Of a DNA stretch of 10,436 bases, positions 1 through 9,886 are shown piece after piece. Each line of letters begins with the position of its first letter. Position 1 is the first letter of the stretch. The notes beneath the pieces were generated by a model. That model saw only the letters and a list, made by a program, of their open reading frames with translations. It made no database searches and was not told where the DNA came from. Source of the stretch: DRGV01 sp018903055 [NCBI: bacterium] (lineage in GTDB: Bacteria > UBP18 > UBA7526); contig JAHIPW010000034.1 of the NCBI GenBank assembly GCA_018903055.1, positions 1-10,436 on the forward strand, read 5' to 3'. The translations under genes and the position numbers were made by a program.

Positions 1-130
1 AGAAACGGGGCAAGTGAAGCGCGCCGTTATCTGTCGCTAGACAGAAACAGGGCAAGTGAAGCGCGCCGTTATTTTAAGGTATCGGAACTTCCATAAGCAA
101 AAGACGGCGGAGAGCGAAGCGCGCCGTTAT
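1..130. repeat. GC-rich repeat, three copies ending in GCGCGCCGTTAT
   Basis: Two nearly identical 30-base copies lie at 1-30 and 43-72 (one difference, G to A) and a diverged third copy at 102-130. All end in GAAGCGCGCCGTTAT. Each copy can fold on itself, because its start (AACGG or ACGGCG) is complementary to its end (CCGTT or CGCCGT). The 12-base gap after copy 1 begins a small hairpin, CTGTC-GCTA-GACAG, that runs into copy 2. The gaps between copies are 12 and 29 bases, so this is not a CRISPR array. The window starts at a repeat boundary, so more copies may lie upstream. No gene is seen here. Confidence 0.8.
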
Positions 131-135
131 TTTTT

Positions 136-168
136 GACTTTTTGGGGCCCCAAAAAGTCTTTCTTTTA
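136..168 (+). terminator. Perfect palindrome with T-rich tail, likely intrinsic terminator
   Basis: Bases 136-159 form a perfect 24-base palindrome: GACTTTTT, then GGGGCCCC, then AAAAAGTC. As RNA it would give a 10-bp stem closing a GGCC loop. It is followed directly by TTTCTTTT (160-167), as expected of a Rho-independent terminator on the + strand. The - strand lacks a T-run after the stem. It probably ends transcription from a gene left of the window and separates it from pmbA. It could also be one more member of the local palindromic repeats. Confidence 0.6.
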
Positions 169-175
169 TAAGGAC

Positions 176-195
176 CTCCCCGATAAATCGGGGAG
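176..195. repeat. Perfect hairpin CTCCCCGAT-AA-ATCGGGGAG
   Basis: Two 9-base arms (176-184 and 187-195) are exact reverse complements around AA. A run AGAACCTTGTT follows, the same word that recurs in the 37-base repeats just downstream. With no T-run after it, it reads as a palindromic repeat rather than a terminator. Confidence 0.6.
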
Positions 196-353
196 AACCT
201 TGTTTTTCGCTTCGCTCCAAATAAGAACCCACTTCGTAGAACCTTGTTACTTTCGTAATAAGAACCTACTTCGTAGAACCTTGTTTTACTCACTTCGTTC
301 ATAAAATGAGCCAAGCAAGTTGTCTCTTTTATTCGCTTCGCTCATAAAATGAG
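194..353. repeat. 37-base tandem repeat with ACTTCGTAGAACCTTGTT core, plus CTCATAAAATGAG pair
   Basis: The unit starting ATAAGAACC(C/T)ACTTCGTAG and continuing AACCTTGTT occurs at 221 and 258, a 37-base period, with a partial copy at 194-213. The core CTACTTCGTAG is a mini-hairpin. Next come two copies of TTCG(T/C)TCATAAAATGAG, around 293-310 and 336-353; CTCAT-AAA-ATGAG is itself a perfect hairpin. The second copy ends on the base before the pmbA start codon. No coding potential is credible here; short open frames across it are translated repeats. Confidence 0.75.
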
Positions 354-2099: not shown

Positions 2100-2963
2100 A
2101 TGAAAATTGATGGCGAAACAAAGGTAGTGGGACTCATCGGTTATCCTATAGGACATACCCTCTCTCCAGCAATGCATAATAGGGCCTTCGAATATCTGGA
2201 CCTCAATTATCTCTATCTTCCCTTCCCGGTTAAGGAGAGTAATCTAAAAGAGGCCCTGAGGGCCCTGCCCGCCTTGAGCGTGGTGGGGGTAAACGTCACC
2301 CTGCCCTATAAAGAGAGGGTTCTTGAATATCTGGATGAGGTGAGTGAGGAAGCAGAACTCACCCAGGCAGTGAATACCATCTTGGTTAAAGATAGTAGAT
2401 TGATAGGATATAATACAGACGGGAAAGGATTTGTTACCTCCCTAAAGAAAGGGGCGGAGTTCAATCCCAGGGATAAGAAGGTAGTAATTATCGGTGCTGG
2501 GGGCGCTTCCCGGGCGGTGAGCATCGGACTTGCTAAAGAAGGAGTGGAGAAAATCACTCTGATCGATATCGTCTTTAATAAGGCTCAATCTCTCGCTTCT
2601 CACATCGCAAAAAATATCTCTAAAGTAGAAGTTGCTGCAGTGAAAGAAGAGGGGCTGGGAAAGGAGGTTAGGGAGGCAGATATTCTGATTAATGCCACAC
2701 CATTGGGGATGAAGCCAGATGATTCCCTGCCCATCGATCCCAAACTACTCCATCCAAATCTTTTAGTCTATGATTTAATCTACAATCCCTCGAAGACTAA
2801 GCTCTTAAGCGAGGCAGAGAGGATAGGAGCAAAGACCCTAAACGGGATAGGGATGCTCCTCTATCAGGGGGCCCTGGCCTTTACCATCTGGACAGGCAGG
2901 GAGGCGCCAATCGAGGTGATGGCTCGGGCCTTGAAGGAAGAACTCAAAACTCAAGTCAGTTAA
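2100..2963 (+). CDS. aroE: Shikimate dehydrogenase (NADP+)
   Basis: AroE reduces 3-dehydroshikimate to shikimate with NADPH, the fourth common step of aromatic amino acid synthesis, in the cytoplasm. The 287 residues are near the family's usual 270-290. Substrate-domain motifs are visible: GYPIGHTLSPAMHN (14-27; the first Ser of the usual SLS is Thr), NVTLPYK with catalytic Lys71, and NTDGKGF with catalytic Asp107. The nucleotide-binding loop GAGGASRA is at 132-139, followed by NATPLGM and YDLIYNPSKTKLL. Near the C-terminus NGIGMLLYQGALAF carries the conserved Gln. The ATG at 2100 follows a GGAGTGAGG ribosome-binding segment by 9 bases. The gene sits between pmbA and pilD with repeat-filled gaps on both sides. 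Nothing essential looks missing. Confidence 0.96.
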   Translation: MKIDGETKVVGLIGYPIGHTLSPAMHNRAFEYLDLNYLYLPFPVKESNLKEALRALPALSVVGVNVTLPYKERVLEYLDEVSEEAELTQAVNTILVKDSRLIGYNTDGKGFVTSLKKGAEFNPRDKKVVIIGAGGASRAVSIGLAKEGVEKITLIDIVFNKAQSLASHIAKNISKVEVAAVKEEGLGKEVREADILINATPLGMKPDDSLPIDPKLLHPNLLVYDLIYNPSKTKLLSEAERIGAKTLNGIGMLLYQGALAFTIWTGREAPIEVMARALKEELKTQVS

Positions 2964-3107
2964 CAAGGAAACAAATTAGGGGCTTCAGGCTACAAGCTAC
3001 AGGCTGCAGGCTAAAGATACTTCACGATCTAATCCTTGCATTAATTTGAAACTTGAGGCTTGTGACTTGAGGCTTGAAGCATACTTTATTAACTTATCAA
3101 CTGACCC
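2964..3107. repeat. Short AGGCT/ACTTGAGGCTTG repeats between aroE and pilD
   Basis: The gap carries a run of related words, AGGCTACAAGCTACAGGCTGC at about 2987-3007, where AGGCTA- and AGCTAC-type units recur every 7-10 bases. After about 45 bases, ACTTGAGGCTTG occurs twice (about 3051-3062 and 3065-3076). The first set reads AGGCT and the second GAGGCTTG, so they look like two separate simple repeats. No gene or clear promoter is visible. Confidence 0.55.
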
Positions 3108-3122
3108 AAGGAGGTATAATTG
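3108..3122 (+). promoter_or_regulatory. Ribosome-binding site fixing a TTG start for pilD
   Basis: AAGGAGG (3108-3114) is a near-perfect Shine-Dalgarno sequence placed 5 bases before TTG (3120-3122). It decides the start: the first ATG in frame lies well inside the conserved N-terminal domain, so the unusual TTG codon is preferred. Confidence 0.85.
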
Positions 3123-3947
3123 ATATTCAGGACCATTGTTACTTTCATCCTAGGCACTTGTGTGGGGAGCTTCTTGAATGTCTGCATCTGGCGCCTTCCT
3201 CGGAATAAATCCATCATTACTCCTCGTTCTTACTGTCCCAGTTGCCGGGCTCCAGTTAGGGGGTGTGATAATATCCCTTTGATAAGTTATTTTGTCCTTA
3301 AGGGAAGATGTAGAAACTGCAGAGGAAAGATATCACCACGCTACTTCATTGTTGAACTTTTAACCGGTATGATCTTCGCCCTCTTCTATTTCAACTATCT
3401 GCTGGGCAATTTTCCTCCGGGCGAGTTGTTCCTCTATCTTCTCTTGACTTCAGCATTGATTGCTATTACCTTCATAGACTTTGAGCATAAGATAATCCCG
3501 GACAAGATCACCTATCCCGGCATAGTAGTTGGCCTCTTAGCAAGCCTCATAGTTAAGCACCAGGCTCCTTTTATCTTTTCGCATATCCCCGAACTTAATT
3601 CTCTCATCGACTCCTCCTTAGGAGTATTGGCAGGAGGAGGACTCCTGTGGGCCATTGCTATCTTGAGCAAAGGGGGGATGGGAGGAGGAGATATAAAGTT
3701 GGGGGCCATGATCGGTGCCTTCTTAGGCTGGCAACCTACCTTATTGACACTCTTATTGGCCTTCTTCGTCGGGGCTGTAGTGGGTGTTATTCTCATGCTT
3801 TTAAAACTATTTACCAGTAAAAGCCTTAAGGCCGCCTGGAAGAAGAGGAAATCATTCATTCCCTTTGGTCCCTATCTCGCCTTAGCCGCCTTAGTAGTTA
3901 TTTTCAAAGGCCAAGCAATCATGGACTGGTACTTTAGAATCTTCTAG
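3120..3947 (+). CDS. pilD: Prepilin peptidase / N-methyltransferase (type IV pilus or type II secretion)
   Basis: This inner-membrane enzyme removes the leader of type IV prepilins and pseudopilins and methylates the new N-terminus. The 275 residues match the family. The N-terminal domain has GSFLNVCIWRLP (16-27) and two zinc-type pairs, CPSC (39-42) and CRNC (64-67), typical of the bifunctional form. The peptidase A24 domain has its two catalytic aspartates, Asp120 in FIDFEHKIIPD and Asp191 in GGGDIKLG. Several hydrophobic membrane segments follow, ending in the familiar FIPFGPYLALAA. It starts at TTG with a strong ribosome-binding site. It lies between aroE and aroC on the same strand; no pilin, pilB or pilC is in the window, so its substrates must be encoded elsewhere. 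Mixed aro and pil genes occur together in several bacterial lineages, so the position may be inherited. Confidence 0.95.
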   Translation: MIFRTIVTFILGTCVGSFLNVCIWRLPRNKSIITPRSYCPSCRAPVRGCDNIPLISYFVLKGRCRNCRGKISPRYFIVELLTGMIFALFYFNYLLGNFPPGELFLYLLLTSALIAITFIDFEHKIIPDKITYPGIVVGLLASLIVKHQAPFIFSHIPELNSLIDSSLGVLAGGGLLWAIAILSKGGMGGGDIKLGAMIGAFLGWQPTLLTLLLAFFVGAVVGVILMLLKLFTSKSLKAAWKKRKSFIPFGPYLALAALVVIFKGQAIMDWYFRIF

Positions 3948-3974
3948 ATGCAGTAGAACTTCAAAAATTAAGTA

Positions 3975-4057
3975 GATTCAAACGGATGGATGCGAATGCA
4001 AACGGATAAATCATCACAAAAGGGGTCCGTCTGCATCCGTGATAATCTGTCTGAATC
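3975..4057. repeat. Inverted repeat of ATCCGT-type words before aroC
   Basis: GATTCA (3975-3980) and ATGCAAACGGA (3996-4006) on the left are matched by the reverse complements TCCGTCTGCAT (4026-4036, one mismatch) and TGAATC (4052-4057) on the right. The arms are therefore two diverged copies of one repeat in opposite directions. The right arm (ATCCGTGATAATCTGTCTG) belongs to the same ATC(C/T)GTG word family seen before aroB, aroQ and the last gene. No T-run follows, so it is not a clear terminator. Confidence 0.6.
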
Positions 4058-4068
4058 CGCATTTTGCC

Positions 4069-4084
4069 GAACGGAGTGAGGAGG
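4069..4084 (+). promoter_or_regulatory. aroC ribosome-binding segment, the leader form without palindrome
   Basis: GAACGGAGTGAGGAGG ends 6 bases before the aroC ATG and contains GAGGAGG (4078-4084), a strong Shine-Dalgarno sequence. Its first part is the same GAACGGAG...TGAGG that brackets the palindromes before aroE and aroB, but here it is uninterrupted. Confidence 0.8.
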
Positions 4085-4090
4085 TAAGAG

Positions 4091-5245
4091 ATGCTGAGAT
4101 ACCTGACTGCTGGAGAATCGCATGGAAGGTCTTTAATGGCCATTCTGGAGGGTATGCCTTCTGGTTTAAGAGTAGATAAGACTACCATTGATAGGGAACT
4201 TAAGAGAAGACAGGCAGGCTATGGAAGAGGGAAGAGGATGAATATCGAGAAGGATAGGGTCCAGATACTATCTGGAATGAGGGGAGGTGAGACCCTGGGA
4301 AGCCCCGTTGCCCTTTCTATCCCCAATAAAGATTGGGAAAATTGGAAACTAATTATGGATACTTTCGGACCAAGTAAAGGGGAGAAGGTGACCAGGCCAC
4401 GACCGGGTCATGCAGACCTGGTGGGAGCCCTGAAGTATGATCAGGATGATATAAGAAATGTCTTGGAAAGAGCCTCTGCTCGGGAGACGGCAGCCAGGGT
4501 AGCAATAGGTGCCATAGTCAAAGTGCTCCTTTCCGAATTTGGTATCTCAATCGTCAGTCAGGTTATCCAGATCGGTGGTGTAAAGGCAAAAGTGGAAGGT
4601 TTAAAGATTAGCGAGATTAAAAGAAAAGCATCCGGTTCCAAAGTCTCCTGTCCAGATAGAGAGGCAGAGAGACTTATGATAGAGGAGATCGATAAGGCGA
4701 AAAAAGATGGAGATACCCTGGGAGGGATATTCGAGGTCATTACCACTGGTCTGCCCATAGGATTGGGAAGCTATGTCCATCCCGATCGCAGGTTGGACGG
4801 TAGATTGGCTCAAGGATTAATGAGTATTCCGGCAGTAAAGGGGGTTGAAATCGGGTTAGGATTTAGGGTGAGTGAACTTCCCGGATCAGAGGTTCAGGAT
4901 GAGATATTCTACGAGCAGAAAAAAGGATTTTATAGAAAGACGAATAATGCCGGAGGATTGGAAGGCGGGGTAACCAATGGAGAACCTTTAAGAATAAAGG
5001 TGGCCCTGAAGCCCATTTCCACTCTCCAGAGACCTCTCTCCTCAGTAGATCTGATTACTAAGAAAAGAGTTAAAGCAACTGTAGAGAGAGCGGATGTCTG
5101 TGTAGTTCCAGCAGCAGCAGTCATTGGAGAGTCAGTAGTGGCCTTTGAATTAGCCAACGCCCTGATAGAGAAGTTTGGGGGAGATAGTATAAGCGAAATG
5201 CAGAGAAATTACAGAGGCTATCTGAAGTACCTTAAACAAAGATGA
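4091..5245 (+). CDS. aroC: Chorismate synthase
   Basis: AroC converts 5-enolpyruvylshikimate-3-phosphate to chorismate, the last common step, using reduced FMN that is not consumed. The 384 residues match the bacterial form. The signature GESHG is at 8-12, with the conserved His11. [12 protein letters not shown] (39-50) and [15 protein letters not shown] follow. [11 protein letters not shown] and [13 protein letters not shown] (the second signature) lie at about 102-138, and the C-terminal third has the conserved GGVTNGEPL and [15 protein letters not shown] segments. No gap or frameshift is visible. The ATG at 4091 has a strong ribosome-binding site. The stop overlaps the aroK start by 4 bases (ATGA), so the two are almost certainly translated from one message. 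The enzyme making its substrate, AroA, is not encoded in the window. Confidence 0.97.
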
Positions 5246-5838
5246 AGAATATCGTCTTAACTGGCTTTATGGGAGTAGGAAAGAATATTATCGGAAAGAA
5301 ATTGGCTGAGGAATTGGGTTTAAAATTTGTTAATACTGATGATATCATTGAGAAGAAAGAAGGAATTACCATTACCCAAATCTTCGAGAAGTTCGGGGAG
5401 AAACACTTCAGAAAACTCGAAAAGGAAATAATAAAAAAGGTTGCCCAGGGGAAAAACCAAGTCATCTCCACGGGTGGGGGAGTAGTCCTGGACCAAGAGA
5501 ATATTTCTAATTTAACGGAGAACGGAGTCATCATCTGCCTCTGGGCTTCACCAGAGGTGATTAGAGAGAGGGCGAAGAGGGAAACCCATCGTCCTCTCTT
5601 AGAAGGGGTAGATAGAGAGGAGAGAATTAAGGAACTATTAGATTATAGAAAACCATTTTATGAGAAAAGCGCAGACTATATCATCGATACGTCACATTTG
5701 ACTGTAGAAGAAACAGTAGAAAAAATCTTAAAGTGCCTAAGATTCAAACAGATTATAAAGATGCCTTCGCTAGCGCGAAGAACTTTGTTATTCCTCCGCA
5801 TTTTTAGTAGAAGGGATAAGCGAAGCACGTCGTCATAA
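5242..5838 (+). CDS. aroK: Shikimate kinase with altered Mg2+ residues and a repeat-derived tail
   Basis: AroK phosphorylates shikimate at the 3-OH with ATP. The first 168 or so residues are a normal-length kinase. Shikimate-binding features are present: Asp33 in NTDDIIE, Arg57 in [11 protein letters not shown] at 78-80, lid Arg117 in RPLL, and YR at 135-136. Two positions are odd. The P-loop reads GFMGVGKN (8-15), with Asn15 where the family has Ser/Thr, and the usual DxD near residue 31 reads Asn31-Thr-Asp33. In studied enzymes the Ser/Thr and first Asp handle Mg2+. Residues from about 173 on (MPSLARRTL onward) extend beyond the family's usual end of about 170 and read through a palindromic stretch (CTTCGC...GCGAAG, AAGAACTTTGTTA) resembling the repeats left of pmbA. 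The start overlaps aroC by 4 bases. The identity is clear; normal activity is less certain. Confidence 0.9.
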
Positions 5839-5980
5839 TAGCAGATGCAGACAGATAAAATATCTGCCTGATCTATACTTTAATGTCTGTGATCTGTGCC
5901 AATGCCTAATTATTTATGCTCTCTAGGATGCCAACACAGTGCATCCTGTAATCTGTAATAAATCTGTGACAATCTGTGTC
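5839..5980. repeat. Hairpins and ATCTGTG words between aroK and aroB
   Basis: CAGACAGATA (5848-5857) and TATCTGCCTG (5861-5870) form a 10-bp hairpin with one mismatch. AGGATGC (5925-5931) and GCATCCT (5941-5947) form a second, 7-bp stem with a 9-base loop. ATCTGTG words stand at 5892-5898, 5962-5968 and 5972-5978, with shorter versions between. Neither hairpin has a T-run, so transcription may continue from aroK into aroB. Confidence 0.55.
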
Positions 5981-5981
5981 C

Positions 5982-6023
5982 GAACGGAGCCCTAAACCAT
6001 ATGGTTCAGGGCGGAGTGAGGAG
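5982..6023 (+). promoter_or_regulatory. aroB leader palindrome bracketed by CGGAG, with RBS
   Basis: GAACGGAG is followed by a 22-base inverted repeat (5990-6011: CCCTAAACCAT then ATGGTTCAGGG, one mismatch in 11 pairs). CGGAGTGAGGAG (6012-6023) comes next, 3 bases before the aroB ATG. CGGAG therefore stands on both sides of the palindrome. The layout matches the aroE leader, while the aroC leader looks like the same site without the palindrome. The segment places GAGGAG as a rather close ribosome-binding site. Confidence 0.6.
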
Positions 6024-6026
6024 AAG

Positions 6027-7124
6027 ATGGAAGAGATAAAAGTAGACCTTGGTGAGAGAAGTTACAAAATCTTAGTCGATAGCGGAAATCTAAAGGATAT
6101 CGGAAAGACCCTAAAAGATTACCATCTGGGAAAGAAGGCGACTATCATTACCAATCCTATCGTGGGGGACCTCTATCAGGATGTGGTGAAAGACAGCCTA
6201 AGGAAGGAAGGCTTTGAAGTAGCTATCGCCCGGGTGCCGGATGGTGAGGAGTATAAGTCTTTAGAATGGGCTGCTAAATTATACGATGAACTCTTAGAGC
6301 ATAAGAGAGACAGATATTCCTTCATTCTCGCCTTAGGGGGAGGGGTAATTGGGGACTTAGCAGGATTTGTTGCCTCTACCTATATGAGGGGGATACCCTT
6401 CATCCAGGTTCCCACCTCCTTACTTGCTCAGGTGGATGCCTCTATCGGAGGGAAGGTAGCGGTAAATCATCCTTTAGGGAAGAACCTCATCGGCTCATTC
6501 TATCAGCCAAGACTGGTCTATACCGATCTTGCGGTATTAAAGACCTTAGCCCACAGGGAACTCATCGCTGCCTTGGCAGAGGTCATTAAGTACGGGATAA
6601 TTAAGAATAGAGAATTCTTTGATTATCTGGAAACGAACATAGATAGGGTAAAAACGCTTAATCCGAATGTTTTAAAAAAAATGGTTGCTGTCTGCACTCG
6701 TATTAAGTCGGAGTTAGTCTCCCTTGACGAAAGGGAAGAGAAGGGAATACGTTCCATCATAAACTATGGTCATACCATCGGTCATGCCTTGGAGGTTTTG
6801 TCAGAATACAAAGTTTACCGTCATGGGGAGGCGGTCTCTATTGGAATGGTGGCCGCAGCCAGGATTGCCCGGAGGATGGGGATTCTGAATGAAGAAGGAG
6901 AAAGGCGCCAGATAGAACTCTTAGAGAAGGCAGGATTACCAACCGGAATAAAGGGTATCGTTCCCTCAAAGATTATAAAGGCTTTGGCGAGAGATAAGAA
7001 AGTAAAAGAAGGAAAGATAAGGTTTATCTTGGCAACTGAGATAGGTAAAGTAGAAACCAGGGACGATGTCCCACCAGAAATAATAAAAGAAGTCCTGCAA
7101 GAAATAACCGCAGAAAACAGATGA
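6027..7124 (+). CDS. aroB: 3-dehydroquinate synthase
   Basis: AroB turns DAHP into 3-dehydroquinate, the second pathway step, using NAD+ and a divalent metal. From the ATG at 6027 it has 365 residues, usual for the family. The NAD-binding motifs DGEEYKSLE (72-80) and GGGVIGDLAGF (104-114) are present. PTSLLAQVDASIGGK (129-143) holds substrate-site residues. The three metal ligands are visible: Glu185 in AEVIKYG, His249 in NYGHTIGHALE and His266 in RHGEAVSIGM. A frame extends upstream to a GTG at 5976, but those 17 codons translate the palindromic leader and match no family sequence, so 6027 is preferred. It lies 188 bases after aroK on the same strand and probably shares its message, though the gap is full of repeats. 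No damage is seen. Confidence 0.96.
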   Translation: MEEIKVDLGERSYKILVDSGNLKDIGKTLKDYHLGKKATIITNPIVGDLYQDVVKDSLRKEGFEVAIARVPDGEEYKSLEWAAKLYDELLEHKRDRYSFILALGGGVIGDLAGFVASTYMRGIPFIQVPTSLLAQVDASIGGKVAVNHPLGKNLIGSFYQPRLVYTDLAVLKTLAHRELIAALAEVIKYGIIKNREFFDYLETNIDRVKTLNPNVLKKMVAVCTRIKSELVSLDEREEKGIRSIINYGHTIGHALEVLSEYKVYRHGEAVSIGMVAAARIARRMGILNEEGERRQIELLEKAGLPTGIKGIVPSKIIKALARDKKVKEGKIRFILATEIGKVETRDDVPPEIIKEVLQEITAENR

Positions 7125-7130
7125 CAAACT

Positions 7131-7260
7131 TTGTGGTTGGTAGTTGGGTTAGGGTAAGGTAGTGAGTTTGGTAGTTTGGTAAGGGTTATGTGTTTAAAGA
7201 CCAACTACCTAACCCAACAACTAAACCAACAACCTAACCTTAACCTAAAAACTCAACTAG
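7131..7260. repeat. GT-rich arm facing AC-rich arm, imperfect inverted repeat
   Basis: After the aroB stop, 7131-7190 is made of GGTTGGTAGTTGGGTTAGG-like words and 7201-7260 of CCAACTACCTAACCCAAC-like words. GTTGGGTTAGG (7143-7153) is the exact complement of CCTAACCCAAC (7208-7218), and other stretches pair less well. As RNA the arms could form a long imperfect stem after aroB. There is no T-run at its foot, so a terminator is not shown. Strand asymmetry is strong: almost no C in the left arm and almost no G in the right. Confidence 0.65.
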
Positions 7261-7274
7261 AAAAGCCGATTTCT

Positions 7275-7324
7275 AATATCTGTGATCTGTGTCAATCTGT
7301 AAGAAATCTGTGTTAATCTGTGTG
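7275..7324. repeat. Five ATCTGTG words in tandem
   Basis: ATCTGTG occurs at 7278, 7285, 7306 and 7316, and ATCTGT at 7295, all in the same direction and spaced 7 to 11 bases. Similar words appear before aroC, aroB and the last gene, always in gaps and never within coding regions here. No function can be read from the sequence. Confidence 0.65.
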
Positions 7325-7415
7325 GTGGTATGATGAACCCCGCACCTCCTATTATATTCTGTCATATTTATCTTTTAAAAACAGAAGAAGCGAAAAATAG
7401 GTTGCTTTTACTAAG

Positions 7416-7421
7416 TATAAT
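7416..7421 (+). promoter_or_regulatory. Possible -10 box (TATAAT) upstream of aroQ
   Basis: A perfect TATAAT lies 36 bases before the aroQ start in a locally AT-rich stretch. No good -35 box stands 16-18 bases upstream (AAAAAT region), and TTGCTT at 7402 is too close. If used, it would let aroQ and the following membrane-protein gene be transcribed apart from aroB. Confidence 0.35.
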
Positions 7422-7457
7422 ACAGAGAAACTTATTGAATCATAAGGGAGGGGCGGG

Positions 7458-7889
7458 GTGAAGATATTGGTCATTCATGGGCCAAACCTGGATCTTTTAG
7501 GAACCAGAGAACCGGAGGTCTATGGTAAGACTACCTTGGCTGAGATCAATAAGAGGATCCGGAACTTAGTGAAAGAGGAGGGAGGAGAGGTTAGGATCAT
7601 TCAGTCCAACCATGAGGGAAAGATTGTGGAGGAAATAAGTAACTCCATGGAGGATGCTTTAGTCATTAACCCTGCCGCCTATACCCACACCAGTGTGGCT
7701 ATAAGGGATGCTATTGTTGCTAAAAAGATACCGACGGTAGAGGTTCACCTTTCCAATATCTATGCCCGGGAAGAGTTTCGTCATAAATCCTTAATTGCCC
7801 CTGTAGCAGTAGGTCAGATCTCTGGCTTTAGAGTGGATAGTTATCTTTTAGGATTAAGGGCAGCCATCTCTTACCTTAAGAAGAAATGA
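7458..7889 (+). CDS. aroQ: Type II 3-dehydroquinate dehydratase
   Basis: AroQ removes water from 3-dehydroquinate to give 3-dehydroshikimate, the third pathway step. The type II enzyme is a small protein forming dodecamers, unrelated to the type I AroD. The 143 residues are typical. Landmarks are [16 protein letters not shown] (8-23), with Asn10 and the catalytic Tyr22, then QSNHEG (49-54), [11 protein letters not shown] (71-81) with Asn71 and His77, and [17 protein letters not shown] (95-111) with catalytic His97 and Arg108. The start is GTG, fixed by GGGAGG (7446-7451) 6 bases ahead. The stop overlaps the next gene's ATG by 4 bases, so the two are translationally linked. It lies over 330 bases after aroB, across a repeat-rich gap, and may have its own promoter. 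Confidence 0.97.
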
Positions 7890-9886
7890 TTTTTGAACGG
7901 CTCATTACCCTGTGCCTGGTAGCCATCATTCTCTTCAGCCCCCTCTTCAGGGCTGCCCTTCCCATCTGGGCAATAACCCCTGTTTATTTAATACTCTTAG
8001 TTACTTTAGCCATCTGGCTGGTCAGAATAAGAGAGGATAGGGAATTCAGTTTTACCCGAACCCCGCTGGATCTCCCCATCCTCTTTTTTATTCTCTTCGC
8101 CTCTCTCTCCCTAATAAGATCCATCAATATCCATCACAGCATAAGCGCTCTCTATCGCCTCATCTCTTACTTCCTGATATACTTCTTAGTAGTTAATAAC
8201 ATTAAGAACAAATTAGAGATTAAAAAGTTAATCTTGAGTATATTGGGAGTGAGCGTCTTCGTTACCCTCTATGGACTCATCGAATTCTTTATCCACAATT
8301 TCAGCCCACCTTTTTCCACCTTTCCCAATCTAAATATCTTTGCCAGCTTTCTACTCATTTCCTTTTCCTTAGCTTCAGGATTATTACTATTCGGTAAGGA
8401 AAGGGGAAGGGCTAAGAGAATAGTTCTTGGGATAATGTTCATCCTCTTTCTCCTTGCCATCATAACTACCAGGTCTCGAGGAGTCTTCTTAAGTTTAACC
8501 CTGATTGTCACATTTTTGGGATACTTAAAGAACAAACGTTATGCCCTGATAACTTTGGTCTTGGTTATTCTTTTCTTCAGTCTTCTTCCCACCCCGGCTA
8601 ACTCACCATTAGTTCGTCTGATAACTGTAGGAGGAAAGGATCCTTATGCCTACACCAGGCTCTCCATCTGGAAGAGCGCCCTTTCTATATTTAAGAACCA
8701 TCCCTTCTTGGGCACTGGCCTGGGAACCTTCCAGGATGCCTTTCCCGGATACAGTTTTCCGGTAGAGGGGGTCTTTGCCCGTTTTGGGAAGAAGGCCTCC
8801 TTCGCTCACAATGAATACTTACAGATTGCCTCTGAAATGGGAATATTTGCTCTGGGAATATTCATGTGGATTCTCTGCGCTTTCTTAAAGAAAGCAAAAG
8901 AACTGCTAAGAAACCTTCGGGGCAAAGAAGAATACGGCCTAGTTATCGGTTTGATAGTAGGAATAATGGGGATTCTCATCCACAGCCTGGTAGACTTTCC
9001 TCTCCATGCCCCAGCTGTTACCATTTTTCTTACTATAAATGCGGGCTTACTTATGGGCTGGAGCTCATCACCGATCATTTACCCCGCTCGCCCCGTTAGA
9101 TGCTTGCTATCTAACGGGGTAAAAGGGCGAAGCCGCTCTAATGGGGCGGTTCACCGATCATTTACCCCGTTAGAGGGCGACCTGTCCCGTAGGCTTGTCC
9201 TTCGGGAAGCCTCTCTAATGGGGCCGATCACCACTTTAGGTAAGAGGTATTATCTCTATTCAGTTTTAATTATTTTGATCTTGGGATATGCCGTTATCGC
9301 TCCCTACTTGGCGGATATCTATGCCGAGAGAGGGAAGTATAGGAAAGCCATCGCCCATGATCCCTTATGCGGAGAATATCACTTTAAATTGGCTAATCTC
9401 TATGTCAAACAATACAGAGAAACGAAAGATTCTTACTATCGTATTGATGCCTATAAAGAATTTAAGAGGGCAATAAGGCTCGAGTCGAGAAATGGATATT
9501 ACCATCGCTGCTTGGCCAAATTCTATCATGAGAACTTTACTGGAAGATCGAGGATAGACTTTGCCATACGGGCCATGAAAAAAGCTCTGGAACTTTCTCC
9601 TTATGACTGCTTCTTCCATTATGAACTGGGCTCCATCTATGCCAATGAGGAGAGGTATGAAGAAACAATTCAGAACTATAAAAAGGCAATAGAGCTGGAG
9701 CCAAATTATGTCCAAGCCCACTATAATCTGGGTCGTATTTACGAGGACTTAGATAATGCTGAGTTGGCAGAGGAAGAGTATAAAAAGGCAGAAGAATCGA
9801 GAAGAAAAGGTCTAACCAAATTAACACGTACCAAGTATGAGAATCGATTGATCGCCCTACAGAAAAGAATACCAGAAAAAGAATGA
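7886..9886 (+). CDS. O-antigen ligase/polymerase-like membrane protein with TPR tail and in-frame repeat insert
   Basis: The 666 residues comprise about 12 hydrophobic segments (residues 5 to 395), one more at about 452-475, then four TPR-like repeats (about 490-645, such as [20 protein letters not shown] and [20 protein letters not shown]). Residues 255-330 match the Wzy_C pattern: [24 protein letters not shown] and then [12 protein letters not shown] with His308-Asn309. Such proteins (WaaL, Wzy, PglL types) move or join glycan chains from a lipid carrier at the outer face of the inner membrane. The acceptor cannot be told here, and no sugar-transferase neighbours are present. Residues 398-448 are unlike any family sequence, are Arg-rich and correspond to a palindromic repeat insert; without it the protein would read [15 protein letters not shown] across the joint. 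The insert falls in the loop before the last membrane segment. It overlaps aroQ by 4 bases and has no strong ribosome-binding site of its own. Confidence 0.8.
9068..9232. repeat. Two-unit palindromic insert within the ligase-like gene
   Basis: CCGATCA occurs three times, at 9071, 9154 and 9224, bounding two units (76 and 63 bases). Both units begin TTTACCCCG and both contain CTCTAATGGGG near the end (9136-9146, 9213-9223). The 19-base word TCACCGATCATTTACCCCG is exact at 9068-9086 and 9151-9169. Unit 1 contains an 11-bp perfect hairpin, CCCCGTTAGAT (9091-9101) with ATCTAACGGGG (9109-9119). Unit 2 pairs CCCCGTTAGAG (9165-9175) with CTCTAATGGGG, and holds an inner AGGCTT/AAGCCT stem (9191-9196, 9207-9212). 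The stretch 9078-9230 is 153 bases, exactly 51 codons, with no stop in the ligase frame. Confidence 0.85.

What the first reader, a model, noticed from the sequence alone, without database searches (positions are those of the whole stretch)
9068..9232. Paired palindromic insertion adds exactly 51 in-frame codons to an O-antigen ligase-like gene
Three copies of CCGATCA bound two related palindromic units. The first step (9071 to 9154) is 83 bases and the second (9154 to 9224) is 70. Each alone would shift the frame, but together they make 153 bases, 51 codons, with no stop. Removing 9078-9230 leaves a smooth [15 protein letters not shown] join. The added residues are Arg-rich and fall in the loop before the last membrane segment, probably cytoplasmic. 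It resembles the protein-invading palindromic elements of Rickettsia, but with a compensating pair of units and possible 7-base target duplications.
Basis: partly seen in the sequence, partly recalled or inferred. Interest (0 to 1): 0.78.

Follow-up and report, generated by a model that had tools for sequence, protein, structure and literature searches.

The report
Repeat-stuffed loop in sugar-ligase gene
A bacterial gene carries a pile of tiny nested DNA repeats inside one loop of its protein without breaking the reading frame, and related bacteria show the same habit in many everyday genes, often with a different seven-letter repeat at the same spot.

Summary
Window 9071-9230 lies in frame inside an O-antigen-ligase/TPR gene (7886-9886): CCGATCA at 9071, 9154 and 9224, steps 83 and 70, 153 bases, 51 codons, no stop. 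It is best read not as one paired palindrome with target duplications but as a nest of three kinds of dispersed repeat: remnants of the tandem heptamer ACCGATC (CCGATCA is a rotation of it), hairpins with ends CCCCGTTAGA/TCTAACGGGG, and a 27-base hairpin inside one of those. The host belongs to the family of a genome titled UBP18. Heptamer arrays occur at 21.4 and 11.9 per 100 kb in samples of two of these genomes and at 0 in 369 kb from 20 others. About a third lie inside ORFs; 33 of 34 such ORFs match Pfam families, including enolase, Mfd and SAH hydrolase. At 8 chosen loops in 5 genes, 33 of 36 alleles carry an array and 44 of 57 allele pairs use different heptamers. The ligase loop is repeat-filled in 5 of 5 genomes. 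I rate this a new variant of known repeat biology. The agent of spread is unknown: no Y1 transposase or reverse transcriptase was found in 6 incomplete genomes.

The parts
7886..9886 (+). Host gene: O-antigen ligase-like protein (Wzy_C) with C-terminal TPR repeats, 666 aa
   Evidence: ORF; Pfam Wzy_C E 2.1e-22 and TPR families; orthologues 77-83% identical in four relatives
9064..9077 (+). Left heptamer remnant CTCATCA-CCGATCA (ATCACCGATCA is 1.6 units of ACCGATC)
   Evidence: the G002 orthologue has a TCACCAT-type array starting at the same CTCATCAC
9078..9149 (+). First hairpin unit: TTTACCCCGCTCG leader, a 29-base inverted-end hairpin, TAAAA, then the 3' half of a second hairpin (GGGCGAAGCCGCTCTAATGGGGCGG)
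   Evidence: fold
9091..9119 (.). Family B hairpin CCCCGTTAGATGCTTGCTATCTAACGGGG (inverted ends CCCCGTTAGA / TCTAACGGGG)
   Evidence: Copy with one difference in G000 contig 153 (L175:199); 26 distinct B copies of 29-177 bases in held sequence, the two of the window included
9150..9160 (+). Middle heptamer remnant TTCACCGATCA
9161..9223 (+). Second hairpin unit: TTTA plus a 32-base family B hairpin (CCCCGTTAGAGGGCGA|AGCCTCTCTAATGGGG) split by the 27-base family A hairpin
   Evidence: Uninterrupted relatives of 32 and 31 bases in G000 contigs 180 and 138 (L180:6974, L084:3198)
9181..9207 (+). Family A hairpin CCTGTCCCGTAGGCTTGTCCTTCGGGA, 27 bases = 9 codons, nested in the second unit
   Evidence: 14 matches in G000 and 19 in five relatives, at most 2 mismatches; flanks of 17 copies in held sequence
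9224..9233 (+). Right heptamer remnant CCGATCACCA

Best explanation
The insert is a stack of small dispersed repeats in a loop of the ligase that tolerates change, just after the Wzy_C-like membrane part and before the next predicted membrane helix (topology by eye). In this lineage (the family of a genome titled UBP18), tandem 7-base arrays arise at or reach such loops in many genes. Hairpin elements then insert into the arrays and into each other. Natural selection keeps only combinations whose total length is a multiple of three and that contain no stop. In the window a heptamer site of type ACCGATC received a family B hairpin; that block is present twice; one copy then took another family B hairpin and the other the 27-base family A hairpin. 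The order of events and a tandem duplication are inferred. Two properties of heptamers would make genes tolerant of them (logic, not tested by experiment): 7 is coprime to 3, so a perfect array reads as the same repeating peptide in all three frames and is open in all or closed in all; and gain or loss of one or two 7-base units can restore the frame after an insertion of any length. Shown here: the parts, their dispersal, the in-frame state, the different arrays at the same loops. Inferred: mobility, the frame-buffer role, that the protein is made and works.
For: Parts and copies elsewhere. Heptamer arrays: 61 in 286 kb of G000 and 72 in 603 kb of G003, against 0 in 369 kb from 20 other genomes; the 14 G000 contigs taken by number alone give 14 arrays in 73 kb, 19.1 per 100 kb. 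Inside ORFs of at least 150 aa: 21 of 61 and 24 of 72; these 45 arrays lie in 34 ORFs, of which 33 match Pfam families. Same loop, different heptamer: 8 loops in 5 genes (VorB-like, DapF, PurH x4, LpxK, ligase); 33 of 36 alleles hold an array of score 8 or more; 44 of 57 allele pairs differ by more than one base per heptamer. LpxK has an array in 6 of 6 genomes with five heptamers; the G003 enzyme has 9 residues there that the solved enzyme 4ehw lacks. By eye, hairpins sit inside arrays in PurH (G000, G003, G004), VorB-like (G005), DapF (G000) and the ligase (G003, G004). Family A lies in the ligase loop of both G000 and G004, in opposite orientation. In frame: 21 variable segments in 17 of 118 orthologue pairs G000-G003, against 0 of 179 and 1 of 135 proteins split between frames.
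Against: The window itself holds only 1.6-unit pieces of the heptamer; its best array score is 4, below the threshold used, so the heptamer origin of CCGATCA rests on sequence identity, phase and the G002 allele. Arrays are under-represented in genes: about a third lie inside ORFs that make up 80-85% of the sequence. Lag-7 periodicity of the variable segments is above random ORF segments in G003 (0 of 2000 draws) but not in G000 (283 of 2000). The eight loops were chosen because an array was seen there in at least one genome. TilS has an array in G000 but not in G003 or G004; SAH hydrolase and KDO transferase have the same heptamer in G000 and G003. Three of 45 arrays inside ORFs start with a unit that has stops on both strands, so the arrays are imperfect and the all-frames rule is not strict. 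No Y1 transposase and no reverse transcriptase was found, so movement has no known agent. The AlphaFold model of the ligase is poor (mean pLDDT 50) and does not establish the topology. No evidence of expression.
Confidence: 0.8

Rival explanations
1. One reading: a single protein-invading palindromic element, like a Rickettsia palindromic element, inserted as a compensating pair with 7-base target duplications.
For: In-frame, hairpin-forming, dispersed, bounded three times by CCGATCA. The second unit has CCGATCA on both sides of TTTA plus the hairpin; re-paired flanks would give a repeat of 7 or more in 0.09 of 26 copies.
Against: CCGATCA is a rotation of a common tandem heptamer, which gives the same picture without a duplication. 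The pieces occur separately elsewhere. Among the 53 matches only the locus itself matches over the full length. Of 26 family B copies, 25 have no flanking repeat of 7; repeats of 4 or more at the ends are the commoner pattern (10 of 26, 2.9 expected).
Confidence: 0.1
2. Heptamer arrays are only local slippage products that drift in sequence; no array moves, and shared heptamers in distant genes are chance and composition.
For: Mrazek et al. 2007, as quoted in PMC4679880, proposed that 7-base units favour polymerase slippage. The consensus heptamers are linked by single changes more than random heptamers are: 87 links among 64 types, against a mean of 42 and a maximum of 57 in 30 random sets. 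Some alleles of one site look like point variants with the same length (PurH site 1).
Against: Adjacent unrelated heptamers and what look like remnants of an older array beside a newer one (LpxK G000, DapF G000 and G004, by eye) fit insertion of one array into another. 13 exact consensus heptamers are shared out of 38 and 39 types. Hairpins A and B are dispersed in any case. Only the heptamers could be explained this way.
Confidence: 0.35
3. The insert is removed from the mRNA or skipped by ribosomes, so it never reaches the protein.
For: Strong hairpins; hairpins occur in translational bypass elements (recalled).
Against: 21 in-frame segments against at most 1 frame change; removal would not need a multiple of three. 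No Rfam family at gathering threshold in the window.
Confidence: 0.03
4. The loop insert is adaptive: it changes ligase specificity, membrane anchoring or an interaction.
For: 8 Arg and 1 Lys against 3 acidic residues in 51.
Against: The four other genomes have unlike residues and lengths at the same loop; the same happens in enzymes with unrelated functions.
Confidence: 0.05

Closest known systems
Small dispersed repeats nested in tandem heptamers (STRR) of Nostoc and related cyanobacteria (Elhai et al. 2008, Mazel et al. 1990: recalled, neither paper seen; one search listed only papers citing the former)
   Same: Short hairpin elements nested in tandem heptamer arrays and in each other; no transposase attached (as recalled)
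   Different: Different phylum; sequences not compared here. As recalled those lie in intergenic regions and RNA genes; here a third of arrays lie inside protein genes
TAACTGA heptamer repeats of marine Beggiatoaceae (PMC4679880, passages read)
   Same: Dispersed heptamer arrays; 10 of about 170 sets interior to ORFs, one in a surface loop of a beta-prime-like protein; mobility considered
   Different: One heptamer, mostly just upstream of start codons; the authors say that insertions in genes succeeded mainly at the periphery of proteins. Here many heptamers, inside or between domains of housekeeping enzymes, differing between relatives
trnL intron P6b repeat regions of lichen-symbiotic Nostoc (PMC4476775, passages read)
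   Same: Repeated replacement of one repeat class by another at one site
   Different: In an RNA intron, not a protein
Rickettsia palindromic elements (PMC10969869, passages read; Ogata et al. 2000 recalled)
   Same: Palindromic repeats in frame inside protein genes
   Different: RPEs are elements of about 150 bp with a conserved encoded peptide; here three unlike short families are stacked, one hairpin only 27 bases long, with heptamer remnants
REP / REPIN repeats with RAYT transposases (PMC3733652, abstract and outline read)
   Same: 20-40 bp palindromes, sometimes inside genes
   Different: No Y1 transposase found in 6 genomes
GGGNATC heptamer repeats of Xanthomonas and Nostoc (PMC4692102, passages read)
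   Same: Genome-wide tandem heptamers
   Different: One G-rich type, under-represented in coding regions

Membership tests
Rickettsia palindromic elements | One element of about 100-150 bp with homologous copies across the genome over its length | tested here: not met
   Only the locus itself matches over the full 160 bases; other matches cover 15-65 query bases (40 of 50 candidates scored)
Rickettsia palindromic elements | In-frame insertion in a protein gene | tested here: met
Rickettsia palindromic elements | Conserved peptide encoded by the copies | tested here: not met
   Hairpin A is read on either strand: window and G004 ligase in opposite orientation
REP / REPIN with RAYT | Y1 (REP-associated tyrosine) transposase in the genome | tested here: not met
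   PF01797: 0 of 6 genomes; controls ring in 5 of 14. The genomes are 53-93% complete
Tandem heptamer repeats (STRR-like) | Many tandem arrays of period 7 across the genome, well above other periods | tested here: met
   21.4 and 11.9 per 100 kb; periods 4-6 at most 0.2; period 8 at 7.4 and 7.0; 20 control genomes 0 at period 7
Tandem heptamer repeats (STRR-like) | A contiguous heptamer array at the window locus itself | tested here: inconclusive
   Only 1.6-unit pieces remain (score 4); arrays of score 11-18 at this loop in 4 of 4 relatives
Small dispersed repeats nested in heptamers (Elhai type) | Hairpins embedded in heptamer arrays and in each other | tested here: met
   (read by eye)
Small dispersed repeats nested in heptamers (Elhai type) | Sequence homology with the cyanobacterial SDR families | not tested
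   Sequences of those families not at hand
MITE (family B) | Terminal inverted repeats and short target duplications | tested here: inconclusive
   Inverted ends are built into the search pattern; 10 of 26 copies with flanking repeats of 4 or more, 2.9 expected by re-pairing flanks. In the window the first copy has none; the second has only the 7-base CCGATCA at an offset, which is the heptamer

The most novel reading that the evidence does not exclude
Heptamer arrays are a standing, gene-internal landing pad in this lineage: certain protein loops keep a heptamer array over long times while its sequence is repeatedly overwritten by other heptamer arrays and by hairpins, and the heptamer's arithmetic (7 = 1 mod 3, same peptide in every frame) acts as a frame buffer that makes proteins open to invasion by selfish DNA. 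This would need an undescribed mechanism that writes or swaps heptamer arrays.
Probability: 0.25. Interest if true: 0.85.

Novelty: new variant of a known kind. Interest (0 to 1): 0.6.

Why it matters
Repeats whose unit is not a multiple of three are expected to be kept out of genes. Here they sit inside genes for enolase, Mfd, SAH hydrolase, PurH, DapF, LpxK and TilS, and at several loops the relatives carry different heptamers. That gives natural replicate experiments on which loops of housekeeping enzymes accept foreign peptide, and on how small non-autonomous DNA spreads without a visible transposase. The frame-buffer idea can be tested directly in a laboratory strain.

Tried and rejected
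Seven-base target duplications: not needed, since CCGATCA is a rotation of a tandem heptamer of the genome; not strictly excluded for the second unit. RAYT or IS200/IS605-type mobilisation: no PF01797 hit in 6 genomes. Reverse-transcriptase-borne spread: no PF00078 hit in 6 genomes. Known RNA in the window: no Rfam family at gathering threshold. Defence protein: no PADLOC hit for the ligase. Structure: one AlphaFold job on five sequences gave mean pLDDT 50 with the insert near 25-33, too weak to use; no fold search was run. Lag-7 test on variable segments: positive in G003, negative in G000. Frame-split test: the only frame change concerned an ORF without a Pfam match; that test saw only pieces of 25 aa or more at 55% identity or more.

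Rows dropped: the pair counts depend on an array score cut-off of 8 and on loops chosen because an array was seen there. TilS was left out because two of its three alleles lack an array. The G002 DapF allele was dropped because it is masked at that point, and the G000 PurH allele is cut before site 4. Further fragments listed (among them L113-L117 and L145) were not aligned. One of the 22 segments printed was a repeat of another and was dropped.

Literature: searches in the open-licence library. I saw no listing that describes heptamer arrays in frame in many housekeeping genes, nor repeats in UBP18; the listings were ranked and cut, and two papers that mention UBP18 (PMC11920076, PMC11382960) were not read. 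Elhai 2008 was not among the papers listed, and most subscription papers are not in that library.

Full report
What was checked. The stated repeats, steps and frame are all in the sequence. The gene is an O-antigen-ligase-like membrane protein with a TPR tail. The 160-base stretch is strongly self-complementary. Pieces of it recur in the same genome assembly of 1.09 Mb in 191 contigs.

Whose genome. A scan of named genome contigs with the five-sequence ligase alignment returned five loci: four close relatives, one titled UBP18_UBA7526 and three titled CSMAG, plus one distant Patescibacteria hit. The window's own record carries no name.

The same loop in relatives. In the four relatives that have the gene (in G004 cut by the contig end) the very same loop carries repeat matter, each differently: G002 a TCACCAT-type heptamer array; G005 GATATCA heptamers; G003 AAAGTCC heptamers around a hairpin; G004 AAAGTCC heptamers beside the family A hairpin of the window, in opposite orientation. 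The matches in the one same-genus genome, G001 (53% complete), cover only TPR-region residues, so it adds nothing here. In 9 homologues, 6 of them distant, nothing matches the 51 inserted residues.

What the insert is made of. Left: CTCATCA CCGATCA. Then TTTACCCCGCTCG, then a 29-base hairpin with ends CCCCGTTAGA and TCTAACGGGG, then TAAAA and the 3' half of a second hairpin, GGGCGAAGCCGCTCTAATGGGGCGG. Then TTCA CCGATCA. Then TTTA and a 32-base hairpin of the same end type, whose uninterrupted relatives of 32 and 31 bases stand in two other contigs (L180, L084), here split by a 27-base hairpin, CCTGTCCCGTAGGCTTGTCCTTCGGGA. Then CCGATCACCA and the conserved protein again. With the two inner hairpins set aside the two units are near copies over their shared part (45 and 43 bases), which suggests, but does not prove, a duplication.

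The dispersed families. Family A (up to 2 mismatches): 14 matches in G000 and 2, 1, 4, 3 and 9 in G001 to G005; reversed control 0. Of 17 copies in held sequence, most by eye lie between runs such as CTCACTTTCCCAC, that is inside tandem arrays of period 7 or 8. Family B end TCTAACGGGGTAAA (up to 1 mismatch): 54 matches in G000 and 14, 30, 16, 10 and 30 in G001 to G005; reversed control 0 except 2 in G002. Twenty-six distinct B copies of 29 to 177 bases were found in held sequence, the two of the window included; 10 of 26 have flanking direct repeats of 4 or more, against 2.9 expected when flanks are re-paired. That points to a miniature inverted-repeat transposon with a target duplication of about 4 bases. 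Allowing unequal offsets, a 7-base flanking repeat is found in 1 of 26 copies, the second one of the window, and it is CCGATCA.

Heptamers. With one scoring rule, arrays of period 7 number 61 in 286 kb of G000 and 72 in 603 kb of G003; periods 4-6 reach at most 0.2 per 100 kb, period 8 reaches 7.4 and 7.0, period 14 (two units) 8.4 and 3.6; stretches of 20 other genomes (369 kb) have none of period 7. The 14 G000 contigs taken by number alone give 19.1 per 100 kb. The heptamers are many: 38 and 39 consensus types, 13 shared. ACCGATC, of which CCGATCA is a rotation, is among the common ones (4 arrays in each genome).

Inside genes. Twenty-one of 61 and 24 of 72 arrays lie inside ORFs of at least 150 codons, 45 bases or more from the ends; such ORFs make up 80% and 85% of the sequence, so arrays are depleted in genes but far from absent. 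Those 45 arrays are in 34 ORFs; 33 match Pfam families at E<=1e-6, one does not. They include enolase, transcription-repair coupling factor, S-adenosylhomocysteine hydrolase, PurH, DAP epimerase, TilS, LpxK, KDO transferase, apolipoprotein N-acyltransferase, anthranilate synthase and a TonB-dependent receptor. The solved LpxK lacks nine residues where the G003 enzyme has its array. Arrays inside ORFs are more often open on both strands than arrays outside (19 of 45 against 9 of 63, Fisher p 0.0016), as selection for open reading would predict.

Turnover. I compared 8 loops in 5 genes across the family. Thirty-three of 36 alleles hold an array of score 8 or more; of 57 allele pairs, 44 use heptamers that differ by more than one base and 13 the same or nearly the same. 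LpxK: 6 of 6 genomes have an array, with five heptamers. Two copies of the VorB-like gene in one genome (G003), 91% identical over the matched part, carry different heptamers at the same place. Against this, SAH hydrolase and KDO transferase show the same heptamer in G000 and G003, and TilS has an array in one of three genomes. Remnants of one heptamer beside another (LpxK G000, DapF G000 and G004, by eye) fit insertion of a new array into an old one; but the heptamers are also linked by single changes more than random ones (87 links, random mean 42), which leaves room for drift by slippage.

Frame. In 118 reciprocal-best pairs of G000 and G003 (median identity 86%), 17 genes have 21 internal variable segments with gaps of 3 residues or more; a few of these are plain low-complexity or ordinary length differences rather than recognisable repeats. 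By contrast 0 of 179 G003 proteins matched in G000 DNA, and 1 of 135 in the other direction, were split between frames. Selection on the frame is therefore strong, which speaks against removal of inserts at the RNA level or by ribosome hopping. PurH shows how a frame can be kept: G003 has a 25-base hairpin where G004 has one heptamer more, net 18 bases (counted).

Mechanism. Shown: nested, dispersed, in-frame repeats that differ between relatives at fixed loops. Inferred: that heptamers make loops permissive and buffer the frame. Unknown: the agent. Neither Y1 transposase nor reverse transcriptase was found, in genomes that are 53-93% complete.

Comparison with print. Heptamer over-representation is known, mainly between genes (PMC4692102, PMC4679880, passages). 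The Beggiatoaceae paper counts 10 interior sets of about 170 and concludes that insertion in genes succeeded mainly at the periphery of proteins. Replacement of repeat classes at one site is known from the Nostoc trnL intron (PMC4476775, passages). In-frame palindromes are known from Rickettsia (PMC10969869, passages), and palindromes inside genes from REP studies (PMC3733652, abstract). The combination seen here, on this scale and inside enzyme genes, I did not find in the eight searches named in Tried and rejected. I file it as a new variant of a known kind.

Noticed in passing
window 1-353: A dense cluster of short palindromic and direct repeats (30-mer AGAAACGGGGCAAGTGAAGCGCGCCGTTAT, second copy 97%; 29-mer AATAAGAACCYACTTCGTAGAACCTTGTT twice) upstream of the first long gene.
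   Followed up: no
window 2100-7889: A run of shikimate-pathway genes (by eye: shikimate dehydrogenase, chorismate synthase, shikimate kinase, dehydroquinate synthase, dehydroquinase) with a prepilin peptidase among them, collinear in DNA with the relatives' contigs (names recalled from the translations, no family search).
   Followed up: no
G003: L101:2-952 and L062:2-700: Two copies of a 2-oxoacid:ferredoxin oxidoreductase subunit in one genome, 91% identical over the matched part, carry different heptamer arrays at the same loop.
   Followed up: partly
L069:17679-17740, L178:2925-2986, L158:17751-17884, L185:2822-2935: Family B elements also lie inside four other ORFs; size classes 62, 68 and 104-111 bases recur, and some copies have flanking repeats of 4 bases such as TGAA/TGAA, TAAA/TAAA, CAGG/CAGG: perhaps a miniature transposon family.
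   Followed up: partly
G000 and G003 samples: Period 8 arrays are also frequent (7.4 and 7.0 per 100 kb) while periods 9, 11 and 12 are at most 0.4; 8 is likewise coprime to 3.
   Followed up: no
L179:2084-3511 (G000): A Mur-ligase-like protein with four separate heptamer arrays in one gene.
   Followed up: no
L084:2101-2925 (G000): One ORF joins a 23S rRNA intervening-sequence protein (7-114) and a NUDIX domain (143-262), with a heptamer array at 128-139 between them: possibly a gene fusion made by a stop-free array.
   Followed up: no
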